Source: Planctomycetota bacterium
GTDB taxonomy: Bacteria; Planctomycetota; Phycisphaerae; Phycisphaerales; SM1A02
DNA: 64,000 bases
Direction of reading: 5' to 3'
Assembly: GCA_009926625.1 (NCBI GenBank)
Contig: RFON01000004.1
Span: 1-64,000 of the forward strand
This document shows, one piece after another, positions 7,464 through 63,993 of this stretch. The notes under the pieces were generated by a model. It was not told the DNA's origin, made no database searches, and worked only from the letters and a program-made list of their open reading frames with translations. Positions within the stretch are counted from its first letter, which is position 1; the number at the start of each line of letters is the position of its first letter. A program made the translations under genes and the position numbers.

Positions 7464-7469
7464 TAGCCT
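7464..7469 (+). promoter_or_regulatory. -10 box TAGCCT of rnd
   Basis: TAGCCT ends 10 bases before the ATG, giving a leaderless or near-leaderless transcript and supporting the first ATG as start. Confidence 0.45.
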
Positions 7470-7479
7470 CGACATTCCG

Positions 7480-8748
7480 ATGAGCCTGCGCCGCCGAAGA
7501 AGGTCCATGCACCACGCCGAGGCGCACGCCACAGGCGGAACGGTGCGGCGTCCGCAGCTGCAGGATCCGCTCGTCCCGCAGGGCGAGCCAGAGATGCTGT
7601 CCACGCCGAGCGCCCTCGACGAATTCCTCGACCATGTGCGCGCGGCAGGCTCGTTCGCCTACGACACGGAGTTCATCGGCGAAGAAACTTTCTTGCCGCG
7701 CATTTGCCTCGTGCAACTCTCGACCACCGAAAGGGTAGGCCTCGTGGACCCGCTCGAGCTGCCTGACGATGCCATGCGCTGCGTGTGGAAGGCGGTGTGC
7801 GATCCAACGCTGCAGACCATCGTGCATGCGGGTGGGCAGGATGTGTTGATCGCACAGCGCGGCGCCGGCGAGAGCGCATCGGCAGTGATCGACACGCAGA
7901 TCGCAGCGGGCATGACCGGCATGCCCTGGCCGCTCAGCCTCGCCAACCTGGTGGAGTCGCTGTCGGGCGTTCACCTGCCGAAGGGGCACACCTTCACGGA
8001 GTGGGACAAGCGCCCGCTGAGCAAGGCGCAGATTGGCTACGCAGCGGACGATGTTCGCTTCCTGCCGCTGGTCTGGTCCAAGCAGCGCGAGCGACTCGAA
8101 GCGCTTGGCCGCACGGCGTGGGTTGCGGAGGAGACGCGCGAATCCGCACGGCAGAGCGAGGCGTTCGATCCGCAGTCGCAGGTGCGGCGTGCATCGCGTG
8201 GGCTCACGCTTCGGCCGCGCGAGTTGACCGTGCTGCGCGAACTCGTGCTCATTCGCCAGGAGATGGCGCAGGCGCTCAATCTGCCGCCGCGCACGGCGCT
8301 GCCCGACGGCTGCATGCTCGAACTTGCGCGCGTGGGAACCCCGACTGCCGAACGCATCGCACAGGTGCGCGGCATCCCGCGCGCGACCTTGCAGCATTTC
8401 GCGCGCAACATCGAGGAGACCATGGCACGCGCGCGTGCGCTGCCGGCGGATCAGGACGCGCAGTGGACCCCGCGTCCCGAGAGCGCCGAGCAGCGAACGC
8501 AAGTCGATGCGCTCTGGTCGATCCTGTCGATGCGTTCGATCGCACTGGGGATCGCTGCACCGCTCGTCACTTCGCGCGCCGAACTCGCAGGGTGGTTCCT
8601 GTCGGACCGCACCGAGCGCCCACACCTGTTCGCGCCGGGTTCGTGGCGCGAGGAAGCCATCGGATCGTGGCTGGAGTCGTTCCTGCGCGGCGAACGCCAC
8701 CTGAATCTCCGCTGGCACAATGGAGGACCCGCAGCCGATGCAACCTGA
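7480..8748 (+). CDS. rnd: Ribonuclease D
   Basis: 3'-5' exoribonuclease of the DEDDy class, expected to trim tRNA and other stable RNA 3' ends. The 422-residue protein has the exonuclease domain at about residues 40-210: YDTEFIGE (first acidic pair near residue 62), HAGGQD (near 110), and YAADDVRF (near 187, tyrosine-type third motif). An HRDC domain follows at about 225-305 (LRELVLIRQEMAQ), then a second weaker helical domain, as in RNase D. The first 38 residues are Arg- and His-rich and dispensable-looking; ATGs at 7507 and 7594 are alternatives. Its end overlaps coaBC by 11 bases. Confidence 0.9.
   Translation: MSLRRRRRSMHHAEAHATGGTVRRPQLQDPLVPQGEPEMLSTPSALDEFLDHVRAAGSFAYDTEFIGEETFLPRICLVQLSTTERVGLVDPLELPDDAMRCVWKAVCDPTLQTIVHAGGQDVLIAQRGAGESASAVIDTQIAAGMTGMPWPLSLANLVESLSGVHLPKGHTFTEWDKRPLSKAQIGYAADDVRFLPLVWSKQRERLEALGRTAWVAEETRESARQSEAFDPQSQVRRASRGLTLRPRELTVLRELVLIRQEMAQALNLPPRTALPDGCMLELARVGTPTAERIAQVRGIPRATLQHFARNIEETMARARALPADQDAQWTPRPESAEQRTQVDALWSILSMRSIALGIAAPLVTSRAELAGWFLSDRTERPHLFAPGSWREEAIGSWLESFLRGERHLNLRWHNGGPAADAT
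8722..8726 (+). promoter_or_regulatory. Shine-Dalgarno site of coaBC
   Basis: GGAGG inside the end of rnd, 11 bases before the ATG at 8738. It favours that ATG over the one at 8720, which lies just before the site. Confidence 0.5.
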
Positions 8749-10027
8749 CGCACACTGGAATCCGCAGCCGCCCCGCTCGCACGCCATCGGCGATCACGAT
8801 GTGCCGCTCGACTCCGACCACCTCGCGGGCAAGCGTGTTGCACTCCTCGTCACCGGCGGCATCGCCGCGATGAAGTGCCCGATGATCGCGCGCGCCCTGC
8901 GGCGTCATGGCGCGGAGGTGACCGCCATCGCCACGGGCGAGGGGCTTCGCTATGTCACGGAGGACACGCTCGCGTGGAGCACCGACCGTCCAGTGGTGAC
9001 GCAACTCAGTCCGCGCGCGGAACACCTGTCGGGCAGTGAGCCGTTCGATGCGTACCTCGTCGCGCCGGCGACCTACAACACGATCAACAAGATGGCGTGC
9101 GGGATCGCCGATGGAACGGTCACCGCCACGCTCGCATCGGCGCTCGGGCGGCTCGAGCGAGGCGGGTGCGCGGTGCTGCTCTGCCCCACCATGCACGGCT
9201 CGATGCACACGCAGATCCTTGCGGAGAGCCTGGTCCGCCTGCAGAAGCTCGGCGTGCAGGTGATCGCACCGCGCGACGACTACGGCAAGCACAATCTGCC
9301 CGACGAGGAACCGATCGTGCGCGCCGTGTGCCGCGCGCTGTCGCGCTCTCCGCTCCACTCGCGGCGCGCGCTCGTCACGGGCGGTCCCGTTCCTGCACCC
9401 ATCGACGCCGTGCGGCGCATCAGCAGCCGTTTCACGGGCGCGCTCGGCGTTGCCATTGCGCGCGAACTTGATCTGTGCGGCTGCGAGGTGGAACTCGTCC
9501 TCGGCAGCGGGAGCGTCGCAGCACCCGCAGCACCTGCATGGATTCGCCACCAGATCGCGCGCGATGTCACGCACTATCGCTCGCTGGTCCTCGGTGCACT
9601 GGAAATCCCCACGCATGCGGCCGTGCTGTCCGCTGCGGTCGCGGACTTCGCCCCGAGCGAGGTGCGCGCGGGGAAGGTGCCGAGCGCCGAAGGTCCGTGG
9701 CGCATCGAACTGCAGCCCACCGAGAAGGTCATCGATGTCGTGCACCGATTGCATCCTGCGCTTCCGCTCATCGGATTCAAGTACGAGGAGTGCTGCGAGG
9801 TGGATGAACTGCTGAAGGTTGCGTCTGCGCGCGCGTCGCAGCACGGCGCATGCGTCGCGAACCGCGGCGAGGACACGCCCGACGGCGGCGTTCAGACCGC
9901 CTGGTTCGTGGCCGCGGGGCATGACCCCATCCATGTCAGCGGCAAGGCGCTGATCGCGCGCACCATCCGCGAGCACCTCGAGCGCGTTCTCGAGGCGCAT
10001 CCGATGGCACGCGATGCGCCTCGCTGA
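8738..10027 (+). CDS. coaBC: CoaBC-like phosphopantothenoylcysteine synthetase/decarboxylase, divergent
   Basis: Expected to join phosphopantothenate with cysteine and decarboxylate the product in coenzyme A synthesis. The 429-residue protein has both halves. Flavoprotein half: VTGGIAAMK, a histidine in AEHLSG at the place of the catalytic His, and [18 protein letters not shown]. Ligase half from about residue 205: [43 protein letters not shown] and ACVANRGED. Two decarboxylase landmarks deviate: the usual PAMNxxMW reads PTMHGSMH, and the usual ACGxxGxGRMPEP loop with its catalytic cysteine reads [12 protein letters not shown]. The start at 8738 has a GGAGG 11 bases before it. It follows rnd in one transcript. 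Ligase role likely; decarboxylase activity uncertain. Confidence 0.8.
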
Positions 10028-10080
10028 ATCCCCCCGCTGCACCAATCGCACTCCCCGCGCAACAGCGCATCGACCGCGGC

Positions 10081-10086
10081 TATCCT
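10081..10086 (+). promoter_or_regulatory. -10 box TATCCT of the sugar isomerase operon
   Basis: TATCCT ends 8 bases before the ATG at 10095 and excludes the longer upstream reading of this frame. Confidence 0.5.
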
Positions 10087-10094
10087 GCGTTCGA

Positions 10095-11201
10095 ATGCCC
10101 CGCACACTCACCTTGTTTACGGGCCAGTGGGCAGACATGCCGCTCGCGCAACTTGCCCCGAAGGCGCAGTCGATGGGCTACGACGGTCTTGAACTCGCCT
10201 GCTGGGGTGACCACTTCGATGTGCTGCAGGCGGCGGATTCGCCCGCCTACTGTGCGAAGTTGTGGCAACTGCTTGGTGACCACGGGCTGACCTGCGAGGC
10301 CGTTTCGAATCATCTTGTCGGCCAAGCGGTATGCGACCTGATCGATGAGCGCCACCAGAGCATCCTGCCGGCGGATGTCTGGGGCGATGGTGAACCAGAG
10401 GCTGTCCGCGGTCGTGCGGCTGCGCGAATGCAGCGCACTGCCGTTGCGGCGCGCGCTTTCTTCGCTGCCAAGCCCGCGTCGCTTGGCACTGGTCATCGAG
10501 TAGTCGTGAACGGCTTCACGGGGTCGTCCATCTGGCACATGGCGTATGGGTTCCCTGCCACGACGCAGGCGATGTGGCAGCGAGGCTTCGATGACTTTGC
10601 GCGCCGCTGGACACCGATCCTCGATGGCTTCGATGCGGCTGATGTCGACTTCGCGCTCGAGGTTCATCCGACTGAGATCGCCTTCGACACCGCGACCGCG
10701 CAGCGCGCGATCGACGCAGTGCGCGGCCACAAACGATTTGGCTTCAACTTCGATCCGTCGCACTTCGCGTACCAAGGCGTCGATCCCGTTGGATTCATCC
10801 GCCGGTTTGGCGCGCGCATCTTCCACACGCACATCAAGGATGTCTGGTGGAACCGCGGCGACGGCACCGTGGGCACCTTCGGCGGCAACACTTCCTTCGG
10901 CGATCCGCGGCGCACATGGGACTTCCGCTCGCCAGGTCGCGGCGACATTCGCTTTGAAGACATCATCGTGGCGCTGAACGATGTCGGCTACCGCGGTCCG
11001 CTCTCGGTGGAGTGGGAAGATGCGCGCATGGACCGTGAACACGGTGCGGCGGAGGCTGCGGCATTCGTGCGGCGCCTCGACTTTCCCCCCAACGGCGCAG
11101 ACCTCGACAGCAACTTCAATCGCGCGCGGCGCCCCGCGGGCCAATCCGCGAGCGGTCCTGCGACCGCGACCGCGCACATCGGTGCGGGTCCACGCGCATG
11201 A
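10095..11201 (+). CDS. Sugar phosphate isomerase/epimerase family TIM barrel
   Basis: A 368-residue xylose-isomerase-like (AP endonuclease 2 fold) protein. Likely metal ligands are visible at the C-terminal strand ends: glutamate in ALEVHP (near residue 190), aspartate and histidine in NFDPSHF (near 218), HTHIKD (near 245) and glutamate in SVEWED (near 305). Families with this layout isomerise or epimerise sugars and inositols, or degrade 3-keto sugars. ATGA overlap with the next gene, an NAD-dependent Gfo/Idh/MocA protein, suggests that the two act on the same substrate, which cannot be named from sequence. The last 30 residues are low-complexity. No signal peptide. Confidence 0.85.
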
Positions 11202-12442
11202 GCGACACCGCCGCCGCACGCAAGCTTCGCATGGGCATGGTGGGCGGTGGGCGCGGTGCGTTCATCGGTGCTGTCCACCGCAGTGCAGCTGCACTCGATG
11301 GGCGAATCGAACTGGTGTGCGGCGCTTTCAGCTCCGATCCTGATTGCGCGCGCGCGTCGGGGGCGGAACTCTTCCTCCCGCCTGCGCGCTGCTACGAGTC
11401 GTTCGCCGAGATGCTGCGTGTGGAGGCTGCACTGCCGATCGGGCAGCGGATGGACTTCGTGTCGATCGTCACGCCGAACCACCTGCACGCGCCGATGGCA
11501 ACGGCCGCACTGCACGCGGGATTCCCCGTGCTATGCGACAAGCCGCTTGCGCTTTCGCTGCGCGAAGCACTCGATCTCCGCGCCGTCGTCCGCGCATCGG
11601 CACTGCCGTTCGCGCTGACCCACAACTACACGGGCTACCCGCTCGTGAAGGAGGCGCGCGCACTCGTGCGCGGCCGATGCATCGGTGCCGTGCGCAAGGT
11701 CGTGGTGGAGTACCCGCAGGGCTGGCTCGCCACTCGCATCGAGGCAAGTGGGCACCGTCAAGCATCCTGGCGGACTGATCCCGCGCGCGCGGGGCTCGCT
11801 GGATGCGTGGGCGACATCGGAACGCACGCGGAAAATCTGGCGGAGTATGTGACGGGGCTGCGCATCCGCGAACTCGCGGCGGACCTGACTTCCTTCGTCG
11901 ACGGTCGGCCACTCGACGATGACGCGAATGTACTGCTGCGCTTCGAGGGTGGTGCGAAGGGGGCGCTGATCGCTTCGCAGATCGCCGTGGGCGAGGAGAA
12001 CAACTTGAGTCTGCGCGTGTGGGGCAGCAGCGGCGGCATCGAGTGGCATCAGCGAGAACCCAACTCACTCTGGCTGAAGTCCGCAGACCAACCAACGCGA
12101 TTGCTGCGCACGGGCAGCGCGGGGCTTTCCCCCACCGCTGCCGCGGCAACGCGACTGCCGCCTGGGCATCCCGAGGGCTACATCGAAGCGTTCGCGAACA
12201 TCTACCGCGCGTTCGCGGCGCAGGTCGCGGCGCATGTGGATGGCCTCTCGCCTCCATCCGATGCGCTCGACCACCCCACCATCGACGATGGCGTCCGCGG
12301 CATGGCATTCATCGAAGCGGTCGTCGCCAGTTCGCGCGCGAACGCTGCATGGACGCCGCTCGCCGCAGATGCGATGCCATGCGCCGCATCGAGCTTGAAG
12401 TCCGCGCCACCTGTCGCGCCGCAGGCACCTCCCGTTCGATGA
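11198..12442 (+). CDS. Gfo/Idh/MocA-family NAD(P)-dependent oxidoreductase
   Basis: 414 residues. N-terminal Rossmann fold with MVGGGRGAF near residue 15, [12 protein letters not shown] near 90, and the CDKPLA motif (family lysine-proline) near 115. The C-terminal substrate domain has THNYTGYP and the [10 protein letters not shown] segment near 206, where the family places its catalytic histidine. The N-terminus has no Tat signal, unlike many planctomycete relatives, so it should be cytosolic. Coupled by ATGA to the isomerase before it and to the phosphoesterase after it. A sugar or inositol dehydrogenase role is likely; the substrate is unknown. Confidence 0.9.
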
Positions 12443-13071
12443 GCGCGCGCATCTGGGTGACGGCGGATACGCACTTCACGCATGCCGAGGCGATCGGTCT
12501 CTTTGCGCGACCCGTTGCCGCCAACGATGTGTCGGGGATGGATGACCTGCTGATCGAGCGCATCAACGACCGCGTCGGTGCGCGCGATCGATTGATTCAC
12601 CTCGGCGACTTCCTCGGCCCGCGCGATTGGAAGGGCGAAGGTCGTGACAAGACATGCGCGGATGCGCAGTCGCTGCGTGAACGCATCCGCTGCCGGCACA
12701 TCGAACTGGTCCGCGGCAACCACGACCCTGGTCCGAAGCGACTGCGCGGGCTCTTCGAGGAAGTGCATCAGATCCTCTCCATCAAGGGTTGGGGCGGCGG
12801 CGACGATCGCATCGTCTGCTGCCACTATCCACTGCGCACATGGCAGGGCATCTTCAGCGGTGCGTTCCATCTCTACGGACATGCGCACGGCGCGATGCCG
12901 CAGCAGGGTCGCAGCTGCGATGCCGGCGTCGACTGCTGGGCGTATGGCCCCGTGCTGCTCGACGAGATCATCGGATCGCTCGCGCAGGTCGAGCCGCCTT
13001 CCCTCGCGCGGGTCGCGCCGCGCGCGCAGCCGATGCGCACGCCGCGCAGCGGACTTGTCGAGCGCCGATAG
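12439..13071 (+). CDS. Metallophosphoesterase, calcineurin-like
   Basis: A 210-residue soluble protein with all dimetal motifs in order: TADTHFTH (residues 8-15), HLGDFLG (near 54), RGNHD (near 93), CCHYPL (near 128) and YGHAHG (near 146). The pattern matches small bacterial phosphoesterases of unassigned substrate. The start is the ATG in the ATGA overlap with the oxidoreductase gene. The shared operon hints at a phosphorylated sugar or nucleotide, but this is only inference. The C-terminal 35 residues are Arg/Pro-rich and outside the domain. Confidence 0.87.
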   Translation: MSARIWVTADTHFTHAEAIGLFARPVAANDVSGMDDLLIERINDRVGARDRLIHLGDFLGPRDWKGEGRDKTCADAQSLRERIRCRHIELVRGNHDPGPKRLRGLFEEVHQILSIKGWGGGDDRIVCCHYPLRTWQGIFSGAFHLYGHAHGAMPQQGRSCDAGVDCWAYGPVLLDEIIGSLAQVEPPSLARVAPRAQPMRTPRSGLVERR

Positions 13072-13074
13072 CAT
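13069..13074 (+). promoter_or_regulatory. -10 box TAGCAT of the small lipoprotein gene
   Basis: TAGCAT starts at the stop codon of the phosphoesterase gene and ends 9 bases before the ATG at 13084. Confidence 0.4.
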
Positions 13075-13083
13075 CACCGCCGC

Positions 13084-13389
13084 ATGCCGTTCCCACCAAA
13101 GTTTCCCGTTGCCTCCGACTTGCGGCGCACCGCATGCGGGGTTGCAGTGACGGCGCTCATCTCGGCCACTGGCTGTGTGTCGGACGACCCGATGAACACC
13201 ACGGGCGGAAGTGCGCGCCTCTCGCAGGCGGCAAACAATTCGTCGCAGTACACAGGTTCGTGGGACTTGCAGACGACGAACATGGATGAACGATGGAGCG
13301 AGGATCCAACGGTGATGGAGCCTGACTACCCGTACGCGGGCCTGCAGCCCGGCTTCGGTTCGTCGGCGTTCACCCAGTACGGTTCCTGA
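13084..13389 (+). CDS. Small putative lipoprotein, unknown function
   Basis: 101 residues. A short basic start (residues 1-15), a hydrophobic stretch and then ATGC followed by VSDDP give a plausible lipobox with the modified cysteine near residue 31. The mature part, about 70 residues, is rich in Ser, Thr, Asn, Tyr and Gly and has no recognised domain. It faces the lipoprotein gene at 13419 tail to tail. I do not recognise a family. Confidence 0.6.
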   Translation: MPFPPKFPVASDLRRTACGVAVTALISATGCVSDDPMNTTGGSARLSQAANNSSQYTGSWDLQTTNMDERWSEDPTVMEPDYPYAGLQPGFGSSAFTQYGS

Positions 13390-13418
13390 CGCAGGTCACG
13401 GACCGCGCGCCGTTCCAT

Positions 13419-14153: not shown

Positions 14154-14160
14154 GCTTGGA

Positions 14161-14166
14161 ACGCTA
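14161..14166 (-). promoter_or_regulatory. -10 box TAGCGT of the lipoprotein gene
   Basis: TAGCGT ends 7 bases before the ATG at 14153 on the minus strand. Confidence 0.45.
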
Positions 14167-14181
14167 CCACGCGGCAGTTCT

Positions 14182-14187
14182 TACCAT
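14182..14187 (+). promoter_or_regulatory. -10 box TACCAT of purEK
   Basis: TACCAT ends 6 bases before the purE ATG, the spacing expected for a leaderless transcript. Confidence 0.45.
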
Positions 14188-14193
14188 GCCGCC

Positions 14194-16626: not shown

Positions 16627-16633
16627 GCGCTGC

Positions 16634-17969: not shown

Positions 17970-17995
17970 CTGCCCTTTCAGACCCGCCGCGTCCC

Positions 17996-22259: not shown

Positions 22260-22265
22260 TACCAT
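22260..22265 (+). promoter_or_regulatory. -10 box TACCAT of the serine acetyltransferase gene
   Basis: TACCAT ends 6 bases before the GTG at 22272. The 13-mer CTACCATCTCTCT containing it occurs again, on the minus strand, in front of ribH. Confidence 0.45.
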
Positions 22266-26530: not shown

Positions 26531-26536
26531 AGTGTA
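26531..26536 (-). promoter_or_regulatory. -10 box TACACT of the sugar dehydrogenase gene
   Basis: TACACT ends 7 bases before the ATG at 26523. Confidence 0.5.
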
Positions 26537-26563: not shown

Positions 26564-26569
26564 TATTCT
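26564..26569 (+). promoter_or_regulatory. -10 box TATTCT of the DUF1080 operon
   Basis: TATTCT ends 7 bases before the ATG at 26577, leaving no room for a ribosome binding site. Confidence 0.55.
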
Positions 26570-31680: not shown

Positions 31681-31686
31681 AAGGTA
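31681..31686 (-). promoter_or_regulatory. -10 box TACCTT of the CapD-like operon
   Basis: TACCTT ends 7 bases before the ATG at 31673. Confidence 0.45.
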
Positions 31687-31914: not shown

Positions 31915-31920
31915 TACGCT
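31915..31920 (+). promoter_or_regulatory. -10 box TACGCT of the CoA-transferase gene
   Basis: TACGCT ends 8 bases before the ATG at 31929 and argues against the ATG at 31899. Confidence 0.45.
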
Positions 31921-34349: not shown

Positions 34350-35249
34350 TCAGGGCTCCGAAGCAGGCGCCACGGAAGCTTGTGCGCTTCGCATGGCATG
34401 TGCGACTTGATCTGCCACCGCCTGCTGGTGCGGCAGATGAAAAGTGAAGTCGAATGATAGTCCTGCGTAGGTGCGCTGCGAGCTGTCGAGGTGCGTGTGG
34501 ACGAGCTTGGCGGTCGCGCAGATCGGCAGAGGCAGGTGAGCGCCGAGCGATATCTGCAGCCAGAAAACGCGGTGGCGCCCGAGCGCAGCAGCATCTGCCG
34601 ACTCGACGCGAAGTCCAGCTCCACCGCCACCGATGTTCACGAGGAGCGCCGGAAACTCCGGCCCCACCTGCGGCATCGGCATGGCCGTGGCTGCGGTCGA
34701 TGCCGCGACCGCCGCGCTCCCAACCGCTCCATCGCCGCGATGGAGCGCACTCCACGCCGCATCGCTCGCCTCCTCCGCCGCCACAACACTGCGCGGATCG
34801 AGCAGTGGCCACACGCGAACGAGCGGAAGGTTCAAGCCGCCTGCCTCGAAGCGAGCGAATCGGCGCATGCAGCGCTCGACATCGTCTGGCAGCCGCAGCC
34901 GAAGTGCGGAAACGCGCGCACCTGGCACCGCGCAATCATCGATCTTCTCGGTCTTGAACTGCCACCTGTTCTGTCCGACCGTGATCGCGCCATGCAGTCG
35001 TACGCCATTGCCGATTGGAATGTGCTTGCCGAGCATCGTGGGTGCCTCAACCACCACCGACTCCTCCTCGAGCGACACGATCTTCAGGCGCCACACCAGG
35101 TCGCCGCCAGGGATGGCATCGACCCTATCGATCGCAGGTGCATCCGTCGCACTCGGTGGGGCAACGGCAATCTCCAGCGTTCCTCCACGCTCGAAGATCT
35201 GCTGCATGCTGCGCTTCCACTGCGCGGTTCTTGATCGGGATGCTGGCAT
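34350..35249 (-). CDS. PilZ-like protein, YcgR type
   Basis: 299 residues. A first beta-rich domain (about 15-115: LEIAVAPPS, LEEESVVVEAPTM, IPIGNGVRLHG) resembles the N-terminal domain of YcgR-type flagellar brake proteins. The second has RRFAR near residue 131, matching the RxxxR of PilZ, and NIGGGGAGL near 205 in place of the usual [D/N]xSxxG. About 60 Ala/Ser-rich residues are inserted between these motifs. Cyclic-di-GMP binding is plausible but the second motif is degenerate. The start is the ATG 25 bases after the transglutaminase gene; no clear SD. Confidence 0.6.
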   Translation of the reverse strand: MPASRSRTAQWKRSMQQIFERGGTLEIAVAPPSATDAPAIDRVDAIPGGDLVWRLKIVSLEEESVVVEAPTMLGKHIPIGNGVRLHGAITVGQNRWQFKTEKIDDCAVPGARVSALRLRLPDDVERCMRRFARFEAGGLNLPLVRVWPLLDPRSVVAAEEASDAAWSALHRGDGAVGSAAVAASTAATAMPMPQVGPEFPALLVNIGGGGAGLRVESADAAALGRHRVFWLQISLGAHLPLPICATAKLVHTHLDSSQRTYAGLSFDFTFHLPHQQAVADQVAHAMRSAQASVAPASEP

Positions 35250-35274
35250 CCACGCGATGGTAATGAACCGCGCA

Positions 35275-40422: not shown

Positions 40423-40428
40423 ACGCTA
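40423..40428 (-). promoter_or_regulatory. -10 box TAGCGT of the six-gene run
   Basis: TAGCGT ends 7 bases before the ATG at 40415; the spacer AGGGGGG could also act as a weak ribosome site. Confidence 0.45.
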
Positions 40429-43284: not shown

Positions 43285-43290
43285 AGGATA
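43285..43290 (-). promoter_or_regulatory. Possible -10 box TATCCT of leuS
   Basis: TATCCT ends 12 bases before the ATG, slightly further than the 6-10 seen for other heads. Confidence 0.3.
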
Positions 43291-48300: not shown

Positions 48301-48306
48301 AGATTA
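48301..48306 (-). promoter_or_regulatory. -10 box TAATCT of the envelope lipoprotein operon
   Basis: TAATCT (within GGATAATCT) ends 7 bases before the ATG at 48293. Confidence 0.5.
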
Positions 48307-48384: not shown

Positions 48385-49881
48385 TCACACGGGCTGAGAA
48401 CGCCGCATTTGGAAGTGGTTTGGGTGTTCCTGCATGTGCTTCAGCGCATCGCCGACCACATAGAAGCTGCCCGTCACGCACACCAGGTCGTCGGGGCTTG
48501 CGGCGCGTAGCGCCAGCGCGATTGCTTCGCCGGCCGTTCGAGCTACCTGACTCATCTTGCCGCTGCGCTCCTGGAACAGTTTCTGCAACTCGTGCGGGTC
48601 GGCTGCACGCGGGTTGCCGGTCGCGCGCGTGAAGATCACCTTGTCCGCCCCGAGGTTCAGCCGATCAAGCATCTCGCCGACATCCTTGTCCTGGCAGCAG
48701 CCGAACACCGCCACCATGCTGTCGTACGGGACATGCGCGCCCACACATCGCATCAGCGAGTTCAGGCTTGCTGGATTGTGCGCGCCATCCACCAGCACGC
48801 GCGGCCGCTCGCTCACGAGATCCATGCGCCCCACCACGCGCGTCTTCGCCAGACCGGCAGTGACGAGATGCTCTGGGCAGTCGAACCCCGCGGTCCGCGC
48901 CGCATCGATCGCTGCAAGCGCGAGTCCACAATTGGTGGCCTGATGCTCGCCAGGCAGCGGCACGGGCAGGTGCTCGATGCGGGTCTGCTTGGTGTAGAAG
49001 CACACGCGGGTGTGAGGGCCGAGTTCGGGCGAGGTGCAGAATCGGCTCGAGAACTCGATGTCCCGGTTCACGACACGCAGCTCGGCGCCCACGCGTTCCG
49101 CCACCTCGGCGAATGTGCGGTTCACATCAGCCTGCGCATCGAAGGTGATCGCAGGAACGCCGCGCTTGAAGATTCCCGCCTTCTCGCGCGCAATCTTGCT
49201 GACCGTGTCGCCGAGGATCCGCGTGTGGTCGAGGTCGATGGTGGTCACCACGCTCGCGATCGGCGTGATCACATTCGTCGAATCGAGGCGCCCGCCGAGC
49301 CCCACTTCGATGACGGCAATGTCGATCGCCTCACTCGCGAAGTGCTTGAACGCCATCGCCGTGATTGCCTCGAAGAACGTCGGCTCGACCTTCGCGCGCA
49401 CCGCGGCCGACTGCACCTTCTTCGCCATCTCCACGAACGCTGGCTTCGAGATCATCTTCTGATCGACCGTGATCCGCTCGCGCACATCGATGAAGTGCGG
49501 ACTGGTGTACACGCCCACCGTGTAGCCACACTCCTGCAGCATGTGCGCGATCATCGCGCAGGTCGATCCCTTGCCAACCGTTCCAGCCACATGGATGGTC
49601 TTGACCTTATCCTGCGGATCGCCCATGGCCGCAAGCAGCGATCGCATGCGATCCAACTTGAACGCCCCGTCGTCGTAGCGCACGGATCGCATCCGCTCGA
49701 TGTCTGGTCGGTCCGCGAGCCAACGCAGCGCCGCCTGGTAGCCGTCGATCACCGTCTTGCGCGGCTTGGCGCTCTCGACGGCTCGCTGCGGCGTCAGTGT
49801 TGCGGTATTCCCGCCCTTTATCCTGGCGGCGGGGGCATTGGCCTTGCGGACGGGACCCTTTTGCGCTGGCTTGCTCGACAT
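48385..49881 (-). CDS. folC: Bifunctional folylpolyglutamate/dihydrofolate synthase
   Basis: Adds glutamate to folates and dihydropteroate. The 498-residue protein has a Lys/Pro-rich N-terminal extension of about 45 residues, then the Mur-ligase-like core: HVAGTVGKGSTC near residue 97, TSPHFIDVRERI near 128, IEVGLGGRLDSTNVI, HTRILGDT, PGEHQATNCGLAL and VDGAHNPASL in the C-terminal domain. Length and motifs fit FolC. Promoter box TACACT lies nine bases before the ATG. Divergent from the LOG gene with 27 bases between starts. Confidence 0.93.
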   Translation of the reverse strand: MSSKPAQKGPVRKANAPAARIKGGNTATLTPQRAVESAKPRKTVIDGYQAALRWLADRPDIERMRSVRYDDGAFKLDRMRSLLAAMGDPQDKVKTIHVAGTVGKGSTCAMIAHMLQECGYTVGVYTSPHFIDVRERITVDQKMISKPAFVEMAKKVQSAAVRAKVEPTFFEAITAMAFKHFASEAIDIAVIEVGLGGRLDSTNVITPIASVVTTIDLDHTRILGDTVSKIAREKAGIFKRGVPAITFDAQADVNRTFAEVAERVGAELRVVNRDIEFSSRFCTSPELGPHTRVCFYTKQTRIEHLPVPLPGEHQATNCGLALAAIDAARTAGFDCPEHLVTAGLAKTRVVGRMDLVSERPRVLVDGAHNPASLNSLMRCVGAHVPYDSMVAVFGCCQDKDVGEMLDRLNLGADKVIFTRATGNPRAADPHELQKLFQERSGKMSQVARTAGEAIALALRAASPDDLVCVTGSFYVVGDALKHMQEHPNHFQMRRSQPV

Positions 49882-49890
49882 GGGGGGGTG

Positions 49891-49896
49891 AGTGTA
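49891..49896 (-). promoter_or_regulatory. -10 box TACACT of folC
   Basis: TACACT ends 9 bases before the ATG at 49881, with a run of seven C between. Confidence 0.45.
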
Positions 49897-49908
49897 GTCC
49901 TCTCGTTC

Positions 49909-50694: not shown

Positions 50695-50729
50695 GCGCCC
50701 TGCGCCGCGTCAGCGCCCCGCGTGCAGCG

Positions 50730-53985: not shown

Positions 53986-54051
53986 GGTGTTCGTTCGCGA
54001 GGCACCTGCTGTGCGGCGACTGCGCTCTTGGAAGGTACCCGCCTGTGGTTC

Positions 54052-54078
54052 ATTCGATCCATTCGATCGATTCGATCA
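54052..54078. repeat. Tandem array of a 9-base unit
   Basis: Three units ATTCGATCC, ATTCGATCG, ATTCGATCA just before the stop of the pseudopilin gene and about 70 bases before the membrane protein gene on the minus strand. Confidence 0.8.
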
Positions 54079-55673: not shown

Positions 55674-55683
55674 CAGCGCAGCC

Positions 55684-56681: not shown

Positions 56682-56692
56682 GTGGGAGAGAG

Positions 56693-56698
56693 ATGGTA
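56693..56698 (-). promoter_or_regulatory. Possible -10 box TACCAT of ribH operon
   Basis: TACCAT ends 11 bases before the ATG at 56681. It shares two bases with the opposite-strand box of the UbiA-like gene. Confidence 0.35.
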
Positions 56699-56702
56699 GC
56701 CT
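56697..56702 (+). promoter_or_regulatory. -10 box TAGCCT of the UbiA-like gene
   Basis: TAGCCT ends 6 bases before the ATG at 56709. Confidence 0.45.
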
Positions 56703-56708
56703 CGCACC

Positions 56709-57683: not shown

Positions 57684-57698
57684 ATCGTTCCCTCCCGT

Positions 57699-57704
57699 AG
57701 CATC
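57699..57704 (+). promoter_or_regulatory. -10 box TAGCAT of lptD
   Basis: TAGCAT ends 10 bases before the ATG at 57715. Confidence 0.4.
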
Positions 57705-57714
57705 CGCCGCCACG

Positions 57715-60700
57715 ATGGCTGCAGGCGATCGGCGAACGAAACATGCGTTGCACGCTCCCGTGCATCCGCGCGTTGCTGCGCTCGTCCGTCCGTGGTTCGC
57801 GCGCCGATGCGCGCTCCTGTGCGCGATGCTCTTTTCACTGACCTGCGCTGCGCCGAGTGCCGCGCAGGAACTCCGCTCCGTACCCATCACGGGGCAGTCG
57901 CTCGGCGGATTCGTCATTCCCGTCGAGCCCGTGATCGGCGACATCCGCATCGAGGGCGTTCGCGCCTGGACCTGGACGGTTGACGACACGCAGCGCATCC
58001 AACTGCAAGGCGATGTGCAAGTTCGCTTCGGCGGCTACTTCTTCACCAGCACCGATGCGGTCATCTGGATCAATCGCATCCCGAGTGCTGCGGGACTCAT
58101 CAACCAGATTGCCGTTTACTTCCCGGAGGCTGAGGAACCCACGCGACGCGCGGGGCTTGGCGCGAGTGGAAGCGATCTGCTCGTCACCGGCAGCAGCCGC
58201 GGCGATGTGCAACTTTCCGCAGTGGTGGTGGAACGGACGGCGCCGCCAAGCGGTCCGGTGCTCACCGCTGCGACCGATCGCGTGAAGCGTTATCTCGAGT
58301 CGGTCGCGCGCGGTGCGCTGCTGCAGAGGCGACCGCAGGTGGACGCACCACCGCCACCACCGCGGGATCCGCCACTGCGCATCGGTGCGCCGCCCATTCC
58401 TCCGCCCGCAGAGCCAACGCTGCCGACGCCCCTCGTGCGCGCAGCATCGGACACCGCGCAGATCTTCAGTCCGCGCGGCTCGGTCTCGTTTTCAGCGGGT
58501 GATGTTTCGATCGACACCGAACAGAACTGCGTGATGCTCGCGGGCACCGTGCGCGTGGACTACACCAGCCCGCCAGGCGACGGTCCGCTGCGCGAACTGC
58601 AACTTTCCGCTGACCGCGGCGTGGTCTTCCTCAAGCCCGAGTCCACGCGAAGCGCATCGGGCGCGAACGCCATCCTCGATGCGCGCGACATTGCCGGCAT
58701 CTACCTCGAAGGGGATGTGATCGCGACCGACTCCAACTATGTGCTGCGCGGCAAGCGCGTCTACTACGACCTCGAGCGCAACAAGGCGATCGTCCTCGAT
58801 GCGGTCATGCGCACCACGATGCGCAACGGACTGCTTGCCTACGCGCGCGCCGCCGAGATGCGGCAGATCGCAGCAGGCGAGTTCGAGGCAGAGACCGCGC
58901 GCGTATCCACCAGCGAGTTCTTCACGCCGCATCTCTCCGTGGGCGTCTCGAAACTCACCTTCACTGAGGATTCCTCTCCAGGCGGCTCGGGCAGTTTCTT
59001 CACGGGGCAGCACGCCACGCTTCGGGCGAACGGCATTCCCTTTCTTTACTGGCCGTACATCGCAGGGTCGCCCAACCAAGTCCCGCTCAAGTACATCAAT
59101 GTCGGCTTCAACGATTTCCTCGGTGTGATCGTCAAGAGCGACTGGGACCTGCTCGATCTCCTCGGCATCGAAAACGCGGAACCGCTGACGGAAGTGCGGC
59201 TGCTGCAAGAGGCGTATTCGAAGAACGCAGCGGGCTTGGGCTTTTCGGCGCAGGCGAACATCTTCGGCAGCGGCGCCAACATTCGCGCCATGGGCATGTA
59301 CGACTTCGGGAACGAGGAACAGACTGCAGCAGGCAGGACCGTCATCAGCCCGATCCAGTACCGCGGCGATGCAGAGGGCAACTGGCGGGGCAATCTCGCG
59401 AGCGATGTCACGCTCGCCGTCGAGTTTGCGGTCTTCAGCGACTCCACCTACGCGTCCATCTTCAAACAGAACGATTACCTGAATCGCCGCGAGTACGAGA
59501 CGATGGGCTACCTGAACTGGCAGGACGCGAACAACTCGCTCTCGCTGCTGATGAAGTACAACCCGAACAACTTCATCTCGAACGGATCGATCCTCGCCTC
59601 GCGCCCCTACATCACGGACAAGATGCCGGAACTGGCGTACCAGCGCTACGGCGACTCGCTGTTCGGCGATACGGTCACTTGGTCGCAGCAGTACTCGGGA
59701 AACCTGATGCGGCTCGACCTGCAGTCGGGATCGCCATCGCAGCTCGGCATCTCGCCGCTCGCGTTCTCAACCTCGGGGCTCTACCCATCAACGCTGAGCG
59801 TGAAGGATGCGTATGAGTTCGCCGGGTACGACGGACTGACCCGCTCGCGCGTCTACACGAGGCAGGAACTGGCCGTGCCGCTTGCGCTCGGACCGGTGAA
59901 GGCAGTTCCCTTCGTGCATGGGCAGGTGGCCGCGTACATCCTGAACAACTTCAAGGACTACAACCCCGATGCGTCGGATTGGCGTGCCCTCGTCAGCACG
60001 GGAAGCCGATTTTCCACGGAGTGGACAGCCAACTACAACTCCGTGCGCAGTTCGTTCCTGGACCTGAACCGACTGCACCATGTGGTGCAGCCGAGCGCGA
60101 CACTGTGGTACGGCTGGGACTCGCAGAGCGTCCTGAGCATGCCGGTGTACGACCAAGATGTGGAAGCCACATCGGGCGCTGCCGTCGCGCACGCCGCGAT
60201 CGCGAACAAGTTGCAGACGATGCGCGGCGGTCCTGGCAACTGGCGGTCCGTCGACTGGCTCGTGCTGAATGTTGGTGCCGCCATCGACAATCAAGGCAAC
60301 ACGCTGCAGCCAACGACGACCGCGACCGATCCGCTGGGACTGCAATACGCGCAGTCGCCCATGCCGACCTTCTATGCGTGGCGCCCCGAGTATTCGCAGT
60401 GGGGCGATCATGCCTATGCCAACGCAACCTGGCAGCTGAGCGATGCGTTCTCGCTGTACGGGCAAGGCACCTACCTGCTCGAAAACCGCGGCAACTCGAT
60501 CAACAGCTTCGGGCTCACCGACCTCGGGCGCGGCACCATCGGCGGCAGCGTCCAGCAGTCGCCCGATGTCCGCATCTTCGCCGAGTACCGCTATGTGAAC
60601 ACCTTCGGTGTCGCTGGCTATCCAGCGGACGAGTTCCTGCAGGGAGGATTCGCGTATCAACTCAGCAAGAAGTACTCGCTGACCGTTGCGCCGCAATATG

Positions 60701-60918
60701 ACCTTGTGCAGGAGGACTTCCGCGCCTTCTCGGCAGCGCTCACGCGGACCTTTCCAGACTTCTTCCTGACCATCGGCGCTTCGTACAACAAGATCACCGA
60801 CCTGACCACCTTCAACGCCAGCATCCGGATCCCGGGCGCGGGCGGCGCGGGACTCGGGATCGATCCAGAATCGCTTGCGCAAGGCGGTTCATTGGTGCCG
60901 GGGCTCGCGGAGCAGTAG
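57715..60918 (+). CDS. lptD: LptD-like outer-membrane LPS assembly protein
   Basis: 1067 residues. Signal region ends near AAPSAAQ at about residue 45. The N-terminal part (to about 430) contains jellyroll-type OstA/LptA segments: IQLQGDVQVRFGG, SGNDLL-like text (SGSDLLVTG), VMLAGTVRVDY and GIYLEGDVIATDSNYVLRGKRVYYD. The C-terminal 600 residues are the large beta-barrel with many aromatic strand ends (LNWQDANNSLSLLM, YANATWQLSDAFSLYGQG). A Pro-rich spacer near 210-240. Predicted to carry lipopolysaccharide to the outer surface, supporting a Gram-negative envelope. LptE is not adjacent. Confidence 0.82.
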   Translation: MAAGDRRTKHALHAPVHPRVAALVRPWFARRCALLCAMLFSLTCAAPSAAQELRSVPITGQSLGGFVIPVEPVIGDIRIEGVRAWTWTVDDTQRIQLQGDVQVRFGGYFFTSTDAVIWINRIPSAAGLINQIAVYFPEAEEPTRRAGLGASGSDLLVTGSSRGDVQLSAVVVERTAPPSGPVLTAATDRVKRYLESVARGALLQRRPQVDAPPPPPRDPPLRIGAPPIPPPAEPTLPTPLVRAASDTAQIFSPRGSVSFSAGDVSIDTEQNCVMLAGTVRVDYTSPPGDGPLRELQLSADRGVVFLKPESTRSASGANAILDARDIAGIYLEGDVIATDSNYVLRGKRVYYDLERNKAIVLDAVMRTTMRNGLLAYARAAEMRQIAAGEFEAETARVSTSEFFTPHLSVGVSKLTFTEDSSPGGSGSFFTGQHATLRANGIPFLYWPYIAGSPNQVPLKYINVGFNDFLGVIVKSDWDLLDLLGIENAEPLTEVRLLQEAYSKNAAGLGFSAQANIFGSGANIRAMGMYDFGNEEQTAAGRTVISPIQYRGDAEGNWRGNLASDVTLAVEFAVFSDSTYASIFKQNDYLNRREYETMGYLNWQDANNSLSLLMKYNPNNFISNGSILASRPYITDKMPELAYQRYGDSLFGDTVTWSQQYSGNLMRLDLQSGSPSQLGISPLAFSTSGLYPSTLSVKDAYEFAGYDGLTRSRVYTRQELAVPLALGPVKAVPFVHGQVAAYILNNFKDYNPDASDWRALVSTGSRFSTEWTANYNSVRSSFLDLNRLHHVVQPSATLWYGWDSQSVLSMPVYDQDVEATSGAAVAHAAIANKLQTMRGGPGNWRSVDWLVLNVGAAIDNQGNTLQPTTTATDPLGLQYAQSPMPTFYAWRPEYSQWGDHAYANATWQLSDAFSLYGQGTYLLENRGNSINSFGLTDLGRGTIGGSVQQSPDVRIFAEYRYVNTFGVAGYPADEFLQGGFAYQLSKKYSLTVAPQYDLVQEDFRAFSAALTRTFPDFFLTIGASYNKITDLTTFNASIRIPGAGGAGLGIDPESLAQGGSLVPGLAEQ

Positions 60919-60953
60919 CCGCGGCGCCGGCGTTCACCCGCACGAAACCGCGT

Positions 60954-61994
60954 TCACTCGGGGAACAGGCTCGTCCGCTCGTCCGCGCCTGGGTTGAACG
61001 CGAGATGCACATGCTTGGCGCCAGCGGCGGTGATGCGCCGCCCTTGCCGCGTTCGCGCGACGAATCCAGTCTGCAGCAGGAACGGCTCCACCACATCTTC
61101 AAGCGTGCCGCCATCCTCCCCCATCGATGCAGCGAGCGCCTCGACTCCCACAGGGCCACCTTGGTACACACCGCCGAGTGTGGTGAGGTACTTGCGGTCG
61201 AGTGCATCGAGACCCACCGCATCCACCGACTCCAACTCAAGTGCCGCGTCGACCGTGCCGCTGGCGATCGATCCATCGCCGCGCACCAGCGCGAAGTCAT
61301 GCACACGGCGCAGCAGCCGCAGCGCAACGCGCGGCGTCCCGCGACTGCGCGACGCGATCATCGCCAGTGCGTCCTTCGCCACCGAACCCACCTCGAAGAT
61401 GCGCGACGCACGCTCGAGGATCGCCAGCAGATCACCCTCTGGATAGAAGCCCAGATGATGCGTGATGCCGAAGCGCGTTCGCAGCGCCTGCGTGAGCAAC
61501 CCGGGGCGCGTTGTCGCTCCGATGATGGTGAACGGCTTCAGGTTCACCGTCACCACCTTGGCATGCATTCCTGAATCGACCGTGAAGTCGATGCGGAAAT
61601 CCTCCATGGCTGGATAGATGTACTCCTCGACCGCTGCCGGCAGCCGATGAATCTCGTCGATGAACAGCACATCGCGCTCCTGCATCCGAGTGAGCATGCC
61701 CACGAGATCCCCCGCCTTCGTCAGTGCGGGTCCGCTCGTGACCGACGCGTGCGCATCCATCTCGTTCGCGATGACATGTGCGAGCGTCGTCTTCCCGAGC
61801 CCCGGCGGCCCGTGCAGCAGGACATGCTCCATCGGCTTCCCGCGCTGCCGTGCCGCAGCGAGCGCAATGCCGAGGCGCTCCTTCAGCGAGGACTGCCCGA
61901 CATACTCCGTCATGCGCTGCGGACGGATGGAAGGGAGCGCGCTCGCCTCGTCATCCGACTGCGCCGCTGCAGAAACGATTCGTTCCTTGGCCAT
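60954..61994 (-). CDS. ruvB: Holliday junction branch migration ATPase RuvB
   Basis: 346 residues. AAA+ motor of the RuvABC complex: LRPQRMTEYVGQ start, HGPPGLGKTTLAH near residue 62, LFIDEIHRL near 115, GATTRPGLLTQALRTRFG near 165 and a winged helix C-terminus with LLQTGFVARTRQGR. All motifs intact. ruvA and ruvC are not in the window. GGAG lies about 10 bases before the ATG. Convergent with lptD; 35 bases between stops. Confidence 0.96.
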   Translation of the reverse strand: MAKERIVSAAAQSDDEASALPSIRPQRMTEYVGQSSLKERLGIALAAARQRGKPMEHVLLHGPPGLGKTTLAHVIANEMDAHASVTSGPALTKAGDLVGMLTRMQERDVLFIDEIHRLPAAVEEYIYPAMEDFRIDFTVDSGMHAKVVTVNLKPFTIIGATTRPGLLTQALRTRFGITHHLGFYPEGDLLAILERASRIFEVGSVAKDALAMIASRSRGTPRVALRLLRRVHDFALVRGDGSIASGTVDAALELESVDAVGLDALDRKYLTTLGGVYQGGPVGVEALAASMGEDGGTLEDVVEPFLLQTGFVARTRQGRRITAAGAKHVHLAFNPGADERTSLFPE

Positions 61995-62046
61995 CCGTGA
62001 CCGCTCCTCGCCTACGCCACACTCTTCGGCGACCGACTCGTGTCCG

Positions 62047-62643
62047 TCAGAATTTCACGACTGGCACCGCGCGCTCCGATTCGCCGGCCTTGAAGAAGTC
62101 GAACGGTGTGAATCCGAAAAGCCGTCCGACGATGTTGGCGGGGAACTGTGCCAGCGTTGCATTGAACCCCTGCGCGGATCCGTTGAAGCCGCCGCGGGAC
62201 TGTGCAATCCCAGTCTCGAGGCCGGACAACTCGCCTTGCAACTGCAGGAAGTTCTGATTTGCCTTCAAGTCTGGGTACGCCTCGGCGACCGCCATCAGGC
62301 GACCGAGTGCGCCCGTGAGTTGCGCCTCCGCCTCGCCGCGCTCCGCAATGCTGCCGCCCTTCATCGCGGCGGCGCGGGCTTGGATCACCGCCTCGAGCGT
62401 GCCGCGCTCATGCGCCGCGTAGCCCTGCACCGTGCTGACGAGATTCGGGATCAGGTCATGGCGACGCTTGAGCTGCACATCGATGCCGCTGAACGCCGCC
62501 TCGGTCGCGACGCGGAGCCGCTGCAGCGAGTTGTAGACGCCCATGACATAGAGACCCACCACGATGGCGAGTACGACGATGCCACCGACAATGAACACCA
62601 AGATCCCGATTCCGGCTGCCAGTTGTGCAACGAGATTCACCAT
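62047..62643 (-). CDS. lemA: LemA family protein
   Basis: 198 residues. One N-terminal membrane helix (about 6-33) followed by a helical bundle: YVMGVYNSLQRLRV, IDVQLKRRHDLIPNLVSTVQGYA, ANQNFLQLQGELSGLE, FNATLAQFPANIVGRLFGF. Matches LemA in size and pattern. Function in bacteria is unsettled. Start at ATG 62643; a longer frame to 62694 lacks support. Confidence 0.93.
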   Translation of the reverse strand: MVNLVAQLAAGIGILVFIVGGIVVLAIVVGLYVMGVYNSLQRLRVATEAAFSGIDVQLKRRHDLIPNLVSTVQGYAAHERGTLEAVIQARAAAMKGGSIAERGEAEAQLTGALGRLMAVAEAYPDLKANQNFLQLQGELSGLETGIAQSRGGFNGSAQGFNATLAQFPANIVGRLFGFTPFDFFKAGESERAVPVVKF

Positions 62644-62742
62644 CGGATTTCGCACTCCACGCTGCGCCCCCGAGGCCGCTGGGCACGCGCCCACCGAACG
62701 CCACGGATGCTTGGGGCGGATGCTACGCCATCGCGCATGCGT

Positions 62743-63237
62743 TCAGGAGCCGCCGAGTTTCACCACTCGCGCAAACTCCGCCGCGGTGACGGGCGTCACG
62801 GAAAGTCGATTGCCTCGCTGCAGGATCCGCATCCCCTTCAGCGAGCGGTCTGCACGCAGCATCGCCATGGTCACGGGGACCGCGAGGCGCGATCCAAAGC
62901 GCACCGTGACCGCACACCAGCGCGGATCCTCGCGCTTGGAAGCCTCATCGAAGCCCTCGCTGCGCGGATCAAACTGCGTCGGATCGGGCTGCGCCAACCC
63001 CACGACGACTGCCGTGCCGACCACGCCGGTCGGATCGCCGCTCGAGTGGTGGAACAGCACGCGGTCGTTCACCTGCATCGAACGCAGGAAGTTCCGAGCC
63101 TGGTAGTTGCGGATGCCGTCCCACAGCGTCGACCCATCGCGGCGGAGGTCATCGATCGAGTAGACCGAGGGCTCCGACTTGGCGAGCCAGCACTGCCCGA
63201 TTCCATCGCCGTTTTCGTCGTCGGTCCGCCGAGCCAC
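62743..63237 (-). CDS. EVE-domain protein
   Basis: 164 residues. The domain starts near residue 17 with CWLAKSEPSVYS and shows RNYQARNFLRSMQVND, HHSSGDPTGVVG and LKGMRILQRGNRLSV, the EVE fold, related to PUA domains and expected to bind modified bases or RNA. GTG 63237 lies 4 bases after the previous gene; an ATG at 63270 would overlap it by 29 bases and is also possible. Downstream of a Lon-N-domain gene. Confidence 0.83.
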   Translation of the reverse strand: MARRTDDENGDGIGQCWLAKSEPSVYSIDDLRRDGSTLWDGIRNYQARNFLRSMQVNDRVLFHHSSGDPTGVVGTAVVVGLAQPDPTQFDPRSEGFDEASKREDPRWCAVTVRFGSRLAVPVTMAMLRADRSLKGMRILQRGNRLSVTPVTAAEFARVVKLGGS

Positions 63238-63241
63238 GGGA

Positions 63242-63979
63242 TCAGTTCCAGCTGACGCCGCGCGGCGCAACGCGCATCTTCTGCGCCTCCGCCTTCGCGA
63301 TGAATCGATCCATGCGACAGAGGTCTCCCCAGATCAACTTGGCGCGCTCGATCGCATCATGTTCGGCAAGCAACTGGTAGCGGAGCGCCTCGTCGCGCAC
63401 CATCGCGAACGCCACCAACTCGAGCGCCACTTCATTCGACAGTTCCGGTCGCTCGATCCAGTCCACGATGGTGCGCGCAGCATGCATCCGCTGCATGCGC
63501 ATGCCCGACAGCATGGAACGCATCTCCGAGCGCACTCGCCCGAGCCCGCGCACCCGACGCTGCGGGTCCTCGATCGGATGCAGGATCGCCTGTCGATACC
63601 AGCGCGCTGCGGTCGGCTCATCGAGTCGATCAATCGCCGCACGGCAGAGTCCCTGCAGCACGATGTCGTAGCGACCATCGTCCCGCTCCTGGTGCTGCAC
63701 GATGTGCCCAACGCACACCACCTTGCGCAGCGGGGGATTCTTGCGTTCCATCGGCGCGTCGGGGTTGGTGCTCGGCGATGCCCCCGGTTCGATGCTGGCA
63801 ATCGCAATCGGCAGCGGCTGCTTCCCGCGCAACACCGGCTCGAGCGCGCACGCCACCATCTGTCGGTAGCGCGGCTCGAAGATGTGCAGCGGAAGCGCAG
63901 TGTGCGGCAGCAGGCAAACGCCTGGCAGCGGAAACAGCGCGATCGGATTGGAGAAGTTGATCGAGACCGACTGCGTCAC
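63242..63979 (-). CDS. Lon N-terminal-domain (LON substrate-binding) protein
   Basis: 245 residues. IALFPLPGVCLLPHTALPLHIFEPRYRQMV is the classic start of the LON substrate-binding domain; VCVGHIVQHQERDDGRYDIVLQGLCRA follows. There is no ATPase or protease part, so it is a standalone domain protein, common in planctomycetes. Start GTG, with TAGGAT eight bases before it. Likely in one transcript with the EVE gene. Confidence 0.9.
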   Translation of the reverse strand: MTQSVSINFSNPIALFPLPGVCLLPHTALPLHIFEPRYRQMVACALEPVLRGKQPLPIAIASIEPGASPSTNPDAPMERKNPPLRKVVCVGHIVQHQERDDGRYDIVLQGLCRAAIDRLDEPTAARWYRQAILHPIEDPQRRVRGLGRVRSEMRSMLSGMRMQRMHAARTIVDWIERPELSNEVALELVAFAMVRDEALRYQLLAEHDAIERAKLIWGDLCRMDRFIAKAEAQKMRVAPRGVSWN

Positions 63980-63987
63980 GGTGGCAC

Positions 63988-63993
63988 ATCCTA
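63988..63993 (-). promoter_or_regulatory. -10 box TAGGAT of the Lon-N-domain gene
   Basis: TAGGAT ends 8 bases before the GTG at 63979. Confidence 0.4.

What the first reader, a model, noticed from the sequence alone, without database searches (positions are those of the whole stretch)
7464..63993. Most transcription units here appear leaderless, with a TANNNT box 6-10 bases before the start codon
Sixteen genes at the head of units have TANNNT ending 6 to 10 bases before the start: rnd, sugar isomerase, both small lipoproteins, purE, cysE, sugar dehydrogenase, DUF1080, CapD-like, CoA-transferase, DUF4026-like, CsgG/PEGA, folC, UbiA-like, lptD and Lon-N. In DNA this GC-rich I would expect fewer than one such hit among about 25 heads by rough composition. 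Spacing of 6-7 puts the +1 on the start codon itself. Leaderless mRNA with a TANNNT box is known from Deinococcus and actinobacteria; it is little described for planctomycetes.
Basis: partly seen in the sequence, partly recalled or inferred. Interest (0 to 1): 0.75.

Follow-up and report, generated by a model that had tools for sequence, protein, structure and literature searches.

The report
Leaderless genes in a planctomycete
In this planctomycete many genes carry what looks like the promoter's -10 box directly in front of the start codon, so their messages probably begin at or very near the start codon itself, a mode known from other bacteria but scarcely described for this group.

Summary
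In 764 kb of the 2.58 Mb genome, TANNNT ends 6-10 nt before motif-blind starts in 83 of 373 unit heads (control mean 8.5, maximum 13). Of 64 XXNNNX patterns only TANNNT peaks strongly (62 vs 4.8). Gene-free, whole genome: 465 vs 168 at a phase-matched distance. All 16 boxes named exist, 15 of 16 at 6-10 nt; lptD's is at 11. Box position is kept in 67 of 81 orthologue comparisons, controls 13-18. Leaderless or near-leaderless transcription from a -10 box, with no -35 box detected, explains this best; no RNA data were available. "Most units" is too strong: about 28% of heads, about half in this window. The excess reaches z>5 in 67 of 81 genomes of the order and 47 of 136 beyond it; it was not detected in families f26 and f38 or in five class-mates. 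Added here: 30 of 110 divergent pairs have both starts boxed (controls 2 and 1), 23 with only 17-58 bp between start codons. The mode is known from Deinococcus and Actinobacteria; the lineage and the compact back-to-back layout are the news.

The parts
7464..7469 (+). TAGCCT box, 10 nt before rnd start 7480
   Evidence: d=10 also in the one relative compared, G015
10081..10086 (+). TATCCT box, 8 nt before sugar isomerase-like gene 10095
   Evidence: no relative found to compare (0/0)
13069..13074 (+). TAGCAT box, 9 nt before small lipoprotein 13084; its TAG is the stop codon of the upstream gene
14161..14166 (-). TAGCGT box, 7 nt before small lipoprotein 14153-
14182..14187 (+). TACCAT box, 6 nt before purE 14194 (40 bp between the divergent starts)
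22260..22265 (+). TACCAT box, 6 nt before cysE-like gene 22272 (GTG)
26531..26536 (-). TACACT box, 7 nt before GSDH-type sugar dehydrogenase 26523-
26564..26569 (+). TATTCT box, 7 nt before DUF1080 (3-keto-disaccharide hydrolase) gene 26577
   Evidence: not found at the orthologue in G015
31681..31686 (-). TACCTT box, 7 nt before CapD-like gene 31673-
31915..31920 (+). TACGCT box, 8 nt before CoA-transferase III 31929
35257..35262 (-).
40423..40428 (-). TAGCGT box, 7 nt before DUF2314 gene 40415-
   Evidence: not found at the orthologue in G015
43285..43290 (-).
   Evidence: box in 8 of 10 relatives
48301..48306 (-). TAATCT box, 7 nt before CsgG/PEGA gene start 48293-
   Evidence: 3 of 3 relatives at d=7
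49891..49896 (-). TACACT box, 9 nt before folC start 49881-
   Evidence: 6 of 13 relatives; in 6 of the 7 misses the protein match begins only at residue 34-45
56693..56698 (-).
   Evidence: 13 of 13 relatives
56697..56702 (+). TAGCCT box, 6 nt before UbiA-like gene 56709
   Evidence: 13 of 13 relatives at d=6, spacer letters diverged
57698..57703 (+). TAGCAT box, 11 nt before the long-ORF start 57715 of the lptD-like gene
   Evidence: box in 9 of 12 relatives, d 9-12
63988..63993 (-). TAGGAT box, 8 nt before Lon-N-like gene 63979- (GTG)
   Evidence: 6 of 6 relatives, d 8-9

Best explanation
The TANNNT box is the -10 element of a promoter, most likely the housekeeping one, placed so that transcription starts on or within a few bases of the start codon; the leaderless (d=6-8) or very short-leader (d=9-12) mRNAs are translated without a Shine-Dalgarno site. 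Shown by sequence: the box, its distance peak with an edge at 6, its near-restriction to unit heads, its conservation. Inferred: that RNA polymerase uses it, that +1 is the start codon, that ribosomes start there. About 28% of unit heads use it; the others presumably have ordinary 5' UTRs, and the 16S rRNA keeps an intact anti-SD.
For: Motif-blind starts: 83/373 heads at d 6-10, mean 8.5 and maximum 13 in twelve 5-nt control windows, 2 at d 0-4; internal genes 8/163, Fisher p 1.6e-7. Of 64 XXNNNX patterns only TANNNT peaks strongly at d 6-8 (62 vs 4.8; next 29 vs 15.6). Gene-free: TANNNT-N6-ATG 71 against about 16; no peak with TTG, CTG, ATC, AAG or ATT. Whole genome 465 vs 168. Footprints 67/81 vs 15, 13, 13 and 18 of 81 in shifted windows. 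Both starts boxed in 30/110 divergent pairs vs 2 and 1; 17-58 bp hardly hold two leaders with SD sites. The near-empty zone at d 0-5 fits a minimum -10 to +1 spacing. In Deinococcus the same motif at 6-7 bp was shown to act as a -10 region and to interact with RpoD (PMC12340547, four sections read).
Against: No RNA evidence. No -35 box as a class: best TTGACA match at spacer 15-19 averages 2.74 of 6 against 2.56-2.69 at five other spacings, though 4 of 62 reach 5 of 6 there. Footprints fail for DUF1080 (0/1), DUF2314 (0/1), folC (6/13), leuS (8/10), lptD (9/12); the isomerase could not be compared. d=9-12 leaves a leader of a few bases. 8 of 163 internal genes are boxed too. Heads keep some SD-like sites (0.20, control 0.09; internal 0.35).
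Confidence: 0.9

Rival explanations
1. The box is a -10 element, but most transcripts start a few bases before the start codon, or are trimmed, so that the mRNAs have short leaders rather than none.
For: Boxes at d 9-12 are also in excess (29, 31, 19, 28 against about 16), which suits a leader of a few bases.
Against: The strongest class is d=6-7 (71 and 40), with no excess at 0-5.
Confidence: 0.06
2. The box is a translation signal (for example a ribosomal protein S1 site or a low-structure stretch), not a promoter.
For: PMC5397173 gives S1 sites as an alternative cause of base bias before start codons in SD-poor phyla (passages seen).
Against: Three fixed bases are specific; internal genes, which also need translation, mostly lack it (8/163); one TA step can serve two opposite genes.
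Confidence: 0.03
3. Chance or start-calling artefact in a G+C-rich genome.
Against: Motif-blind starts, gene-free counts, phase-matched controls and conservation agree.
Confidence: 0.01

Closest known systems
TA-led leaderless genes (Zheng et al. 2011, PMC3160421; passages and one section read)
   Same: TANNNT core about 12 bp upstream of the start, uninformative middle bases in high-G+C genomes, proportions around 20% in Actinobacteria.
   Different: 'planctomyc' does not occur in the main text, although its Table 2 has an unnamed 'Other Bacteria' row (8 of 20 genomes). Here the signal is counted gene-free across one phylum and is patchy.
-10 motif adjacent to ORFs in Deinococcus-Thermus (PMC12340547; four sections read)
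   Same: TANNNT mostly 6-7 bp before the ORF, bases 1, 2 and 6 important, works without a -35 region, coexists with an RBS class, nearly one third of D. radiodurans genes.
   Different: Another phylum; no RNA or binding data here. That paper also scanned bacteria at large (its Fig S7); the sections I read do not name Planctomycetes.
Bidirectional promoters with a symmetric shared -10 element (PMC12825309, passages seen; Warman et al. 2021 only as cited there)
   Same: One -10 element read on both strands, divergent start sites close together.
   Different: Here both products would be leaderless. Most of the 23 compact pairs have two separate boxes; only 3 of 30 boxed pairs share one TA step. 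'Leaderless' does not occur in that paper's main text.

Membership tests
TANNNT leaderless (TA-led) genes | TANNNT core with fixed positions 1, 2, 6 | tested here: met
   only one of 64 XXNNNX patterns to peak strongly
TANNNT leaderless (TA-led) genes | box about 6-7 bp before the start, sharp distance peak | tested here: met
TANNNT leaderless (TA-led) genes | mainly on first genes of units | tested here: met
   83/373 heads vs 8/163 internal genes
TANNNT leaderless (TA-led) genes | no -35 element required | tested here: inconclusive
   no -35 element detected as a class; whether it is dispensable was not tested
TANNNT leaderless (TA-led) genes | coexists with SD-led genes and an intact anti-SD | tested here: met
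   16S tail holds CCTCC; SD-like sites in 35% of internal genes
TANNNT leaderless (TA-led) genes | mRNA 5' end on the start codon | not testable with these tools
   no RNA data
TANNNT leaderless (TA-led) genes | box bound by the housekeeping sigma factor | not testable with these tools
   needs binding or in vitro transcription
Bidirectional promoters with shared -10 | one symmetric -10 (ANNNTANNNT) between divergent genes | tested here: met
   ribH/UbiA in 13 of 13 relatives; 3 of 110 divergent pairs in the sample. CAT-N6-12-core-N6-12-ATG: 14 own-genome sites vs 0 at a shifted distance and 5 for the reversed pattern; 19 genus members 379 vs 152. At least one own site (49604) lies inside folC and is false
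Bidirectional promoters with shared -10 | divergent transcripts from both strands | not testable with these tools
   no RNA data

The most novel reading that the evidence does not exclude
In this order of planctomycetes RNA polymerase reads a bare TANNNT as a complete promoter, and a sizeable share of divergent genes are driven by back-to-back leaderless promoters whose whole intergenic DNA is 17-58 bp, some from one TA step read on both strands; in some same-strand pairs the stop codon of the gene before supplies the box. The mode was gained or lost several times within one phylum.
Probability: 0.5. Interest if true: 0.62.

Novelty: new member of a known kind. Interest (0 to 1): 0.5.

Why it matters
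It extends leaderless expression to an uncultured planctomycete lineage and shows genomes with and without the signal in one phylum, so gain and loss can be compared. Gene callers that look only for SD sites would probably mis-call starts here: in this window the box and its conservation point to other starts than my motif-blind caller chose for purE, CsgG, folC and the gene at 35249. The compact divergent pairs give an anatomical argument for leaderlessness that needs no RNA.

Tried and rejected
A -35 box was looked for and not found as a class. The tool's own control (pattern read backwards) is poor for TANNNT-N-ATG because codon phase differs (465 vs 434 for the own genome), so I used a shift of 9 bases. 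Gene-based counts from the 13 relatives (160 kb each; G186 140 kb, G141 100 kb) are small: box at 6-10 in 12/88 heads of G015 and 11/112 of G027, 4-6 of 88-102 in four other families of the order, 11/93 in G176 (f30), and no clear excess in the six others; G079 shows 4/97 by genes but 730 vs 434 by whole-genome pattern, so distribution claims rest on the latter. High background hides the signal in some genomes (for example G030, 5157 vs 4926), so non-detection there is weak; it is firmer in G142 (347 vs 317) and G154 (634 vs 636). The z values treat counts as independent. For stop codons doubling as boxes, the pattern TAGNNNTN9ATG gave 31 vs 52 for the reversed pattern in the own genome and no usable contrast; the gap-12 case (6 of 6) rests on the own sample. 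Over gaps 5-20 the own sample has 10 such boxes in 45 pairs and the 13 relatives together 10 in 87, one of them at gap 12. The shared-TA excess is clear in the genus (379 vs 152), modest in the rest of the family (646 vs 522; 260 vs 142 without four high-background genomes) and weak in the other families of the order (728 vs 654). Left out of counts: five contigs of about 1 kb (L005-L009) and L001; genes open at a stretch end; genes without an upstream neighbour in the stretch. Genes with gaps of 15-19 are in neither the heads nor the internal class. Names not tested by Pfam: the ten proteins (Lon-N among them) and lipoprotein 1; lptD and lipoprotein 2 gave no match and UbiA is below its cut-off.
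Full report
What was checked. The window is the first 64 kb of contig C29 of a 2,577,474-base genome in 105 contigs. One window protein found 13 named loci at 58-91% identity: three titled Phycisphaerales (Baikal isolates), one Phycisphaerae, two Planctomycetia, one Planctomycetota, four Singulisphaera sp. and two 'uncultured bacterium'. So the phylum is clear, while the order (Phycisphaerales) and the lake origin are inferences. I used 764 kb of the genome (window, parts of C1, C2 and C18, twelve 20-kb pieces) and a home-made dicodon caller that knows nothing of upstream motifs; it found 601 genes covering 90%.

Motif-blind result. Among 373 heads (upstream gap of 20 or more), 83 have TANNNT ending 6-10 nt before the start, against a mean of 8.5 and a maximum of 13 in twelve other 5-nt windows, and 2 at 0-4 nt; internal genes show 8 of 163, Fisher p 1.6e-7. 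All 64 patterns XXNNNX were counted at d 6-8: TANNNT 62 against 4.8, the next 29 against 15.6; with boxed genes removed no pattern of comparable strength remains.

Gene-free result. TANNNT-N(d)-ATG on both strands of the 764 kb gives 2 at d=0, 10-15 at d=1-5, 71 at d=6, 40 at d=7 and 19-31 at d=8-12, baseline about 16. GTG shows a small excess (24 and 22 at d=6 and 7); TTG, CTG, ATC, AAG and ATT show none; CAT peaks at d=5, as expected if C precedes ATG. For the whole genome N6-8 gives 465 and the phase-matched N15-17 gives 168. The excess of 297 compares with about 2,000 genes (my extrapolation from 601 in 764 kb).

How many units. Allowing any in-frame start from -120 to +60 nt, 150 of 409 heads are boxed at 6-10, against 14, 46, 35, 34, 47, 24 and 38 of 409 in the windows 0-4, 11-15, 16-20, 21-25, 26-30, 31-35 and 36-40; in the window 13 of 27 against 0-3. 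Net, about 28% of heads genome-wide. 'Most' is too strong, although this window is rich.

One search confirms each of the 16 boxes; lptD's is at 11. Three further boxes were found (35249-, ribH, leuS). Pfam supports rnd, the isomerase, purE, a cysE-like gene, GSDH, the DUF1080 family, CapD-like, CoA-transferase III, CsgG/PEGA and folC (Mur ligase domains); DUF4026-like comes out as DUF2314.

Footprints. For 19 window genes, orthologues in up to 14 genus relatives were examined at any start within 60 nt of the expected one. Boxes at d 5-12 occur in 67 of 81 comparisons, against 15, 13, 13 and 18 of 81 for four shifted windows. UbiA keeps the box at exactly 6 nt in 13 of 13 while the spacer letters differ. 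Misses: DUF1080 0/1, DUF2314 0/1, folC 6/13, leuS 8/10, lptD 9/12; no orthologue for the isomerase. Eleven of the 19 rest on one relative at most or three (CsgG 3/3). The genes were chosen because they are boxed in the window, so this tests conservation, not frequency.

Divergent pairs. Of 110 divergent pairs in the sample, 30 have boxed starts (d 6-12, start chosen box-aware) on both sides, against 2 and 1 in two control windows; in 23 of the 30 only 17-58 bp separate the start codons, and 3 share one TA step. ribH and UbiA (27 bp) share it in 13 of 13 relatives. A gene-free pattern for the shared core gives 14 sites in the own genome, 0 at the shifted distance and 5 for the reversed pattern; at least one of the 14, at 49604, lies inside folC. 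Over 19 genus members 379 vs 152, over 30 other family members 646 vs 522 (260 vs 142 without four high-background genomes), over 32 other order members 728 vs 654.

Promoter anatomy. Aligned on 62 stringent boxes there is no TTGACA-like element as a class (4 of 62 reach 5 of 6 matches at spacer 15-19); G is enriched two bases upstream of the box (0.50). The 16S rRNA ends with an intact CCTCC; SD-like sites occur in 35% of internal genes and 20% of heads, 9% in a control stretch. This is a mixed system.

Distribution. With z=(peak-control)/sqrt(sum), peak exceeds control in all 81 genomes of the order that were searched; z>5 in 17 of 19 of the genus (own genome included), 25 of 30 other family members and 25 of 32 other members of the order, 67 of 81; z>3 in 75 of 81. 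Beyond the order 47 of 136 genomes have z>5, in 19 of 52 families (for example f22, f30, f45); 0 of 12 in f26, 0 of 10 in f38 and 0 of 5 class-mates (f7-f9).

Interpretation and novelty. The signal has the published properties of the leaderless TANNNT promoters of Actinobacteria and Deinococcus-Thermus (PMC3160421, PMC12340547). It is a new member of a known kind. In the listings of my searches (mostly capped) I saw no start-site map and no report of TANNNT leaderless genes for planctomycetes; PMC5397173 suggests a leaderless or S1 signal from one species (passages). The compact back-to-back leaderless layout was not met in the passages read on bidirectional promoters. Everything about RNA is inferred.

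Noticed in passing
window 56682-56708: ribH and the UbiA-like gene diverge with 27 bp between start codons; one 10-mer ATGGTAGCCT carries both boxes on opposite strands, with the shared TA kept in 13 of 13 relatives.
   Followed up: yes
window 13069-13074 and five other places in the own sample: The stop codon (TAG or TAA) of the upstream gene forms the TA of the box: all 6 same-strand pairs with a 12-nt gap do so, although such stops end only 80 of 601 genes.
   Followed up: partly
window 49882-49908: folC and the divergent gene 49909+ are also 27 bp apart; the second strand reads TAGTCC over the same TA, a box with C in place of the last T.
   Followed up: no
upstream of the UbiA box in the window and in L045-L085: A TTCATG-like word, sometimes repeated, lies about 20 nt before the UbiA box in many genus members; it could be an operator or a -35 substitute.
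   Followed up: no
G076, G043, G035 (unnamed relatives): The strongest ratios seen in the order: 517 vs 43, 424 vs 79 and 509 vs 93; perhaps better subjects for an experiment.
   Followed up: no
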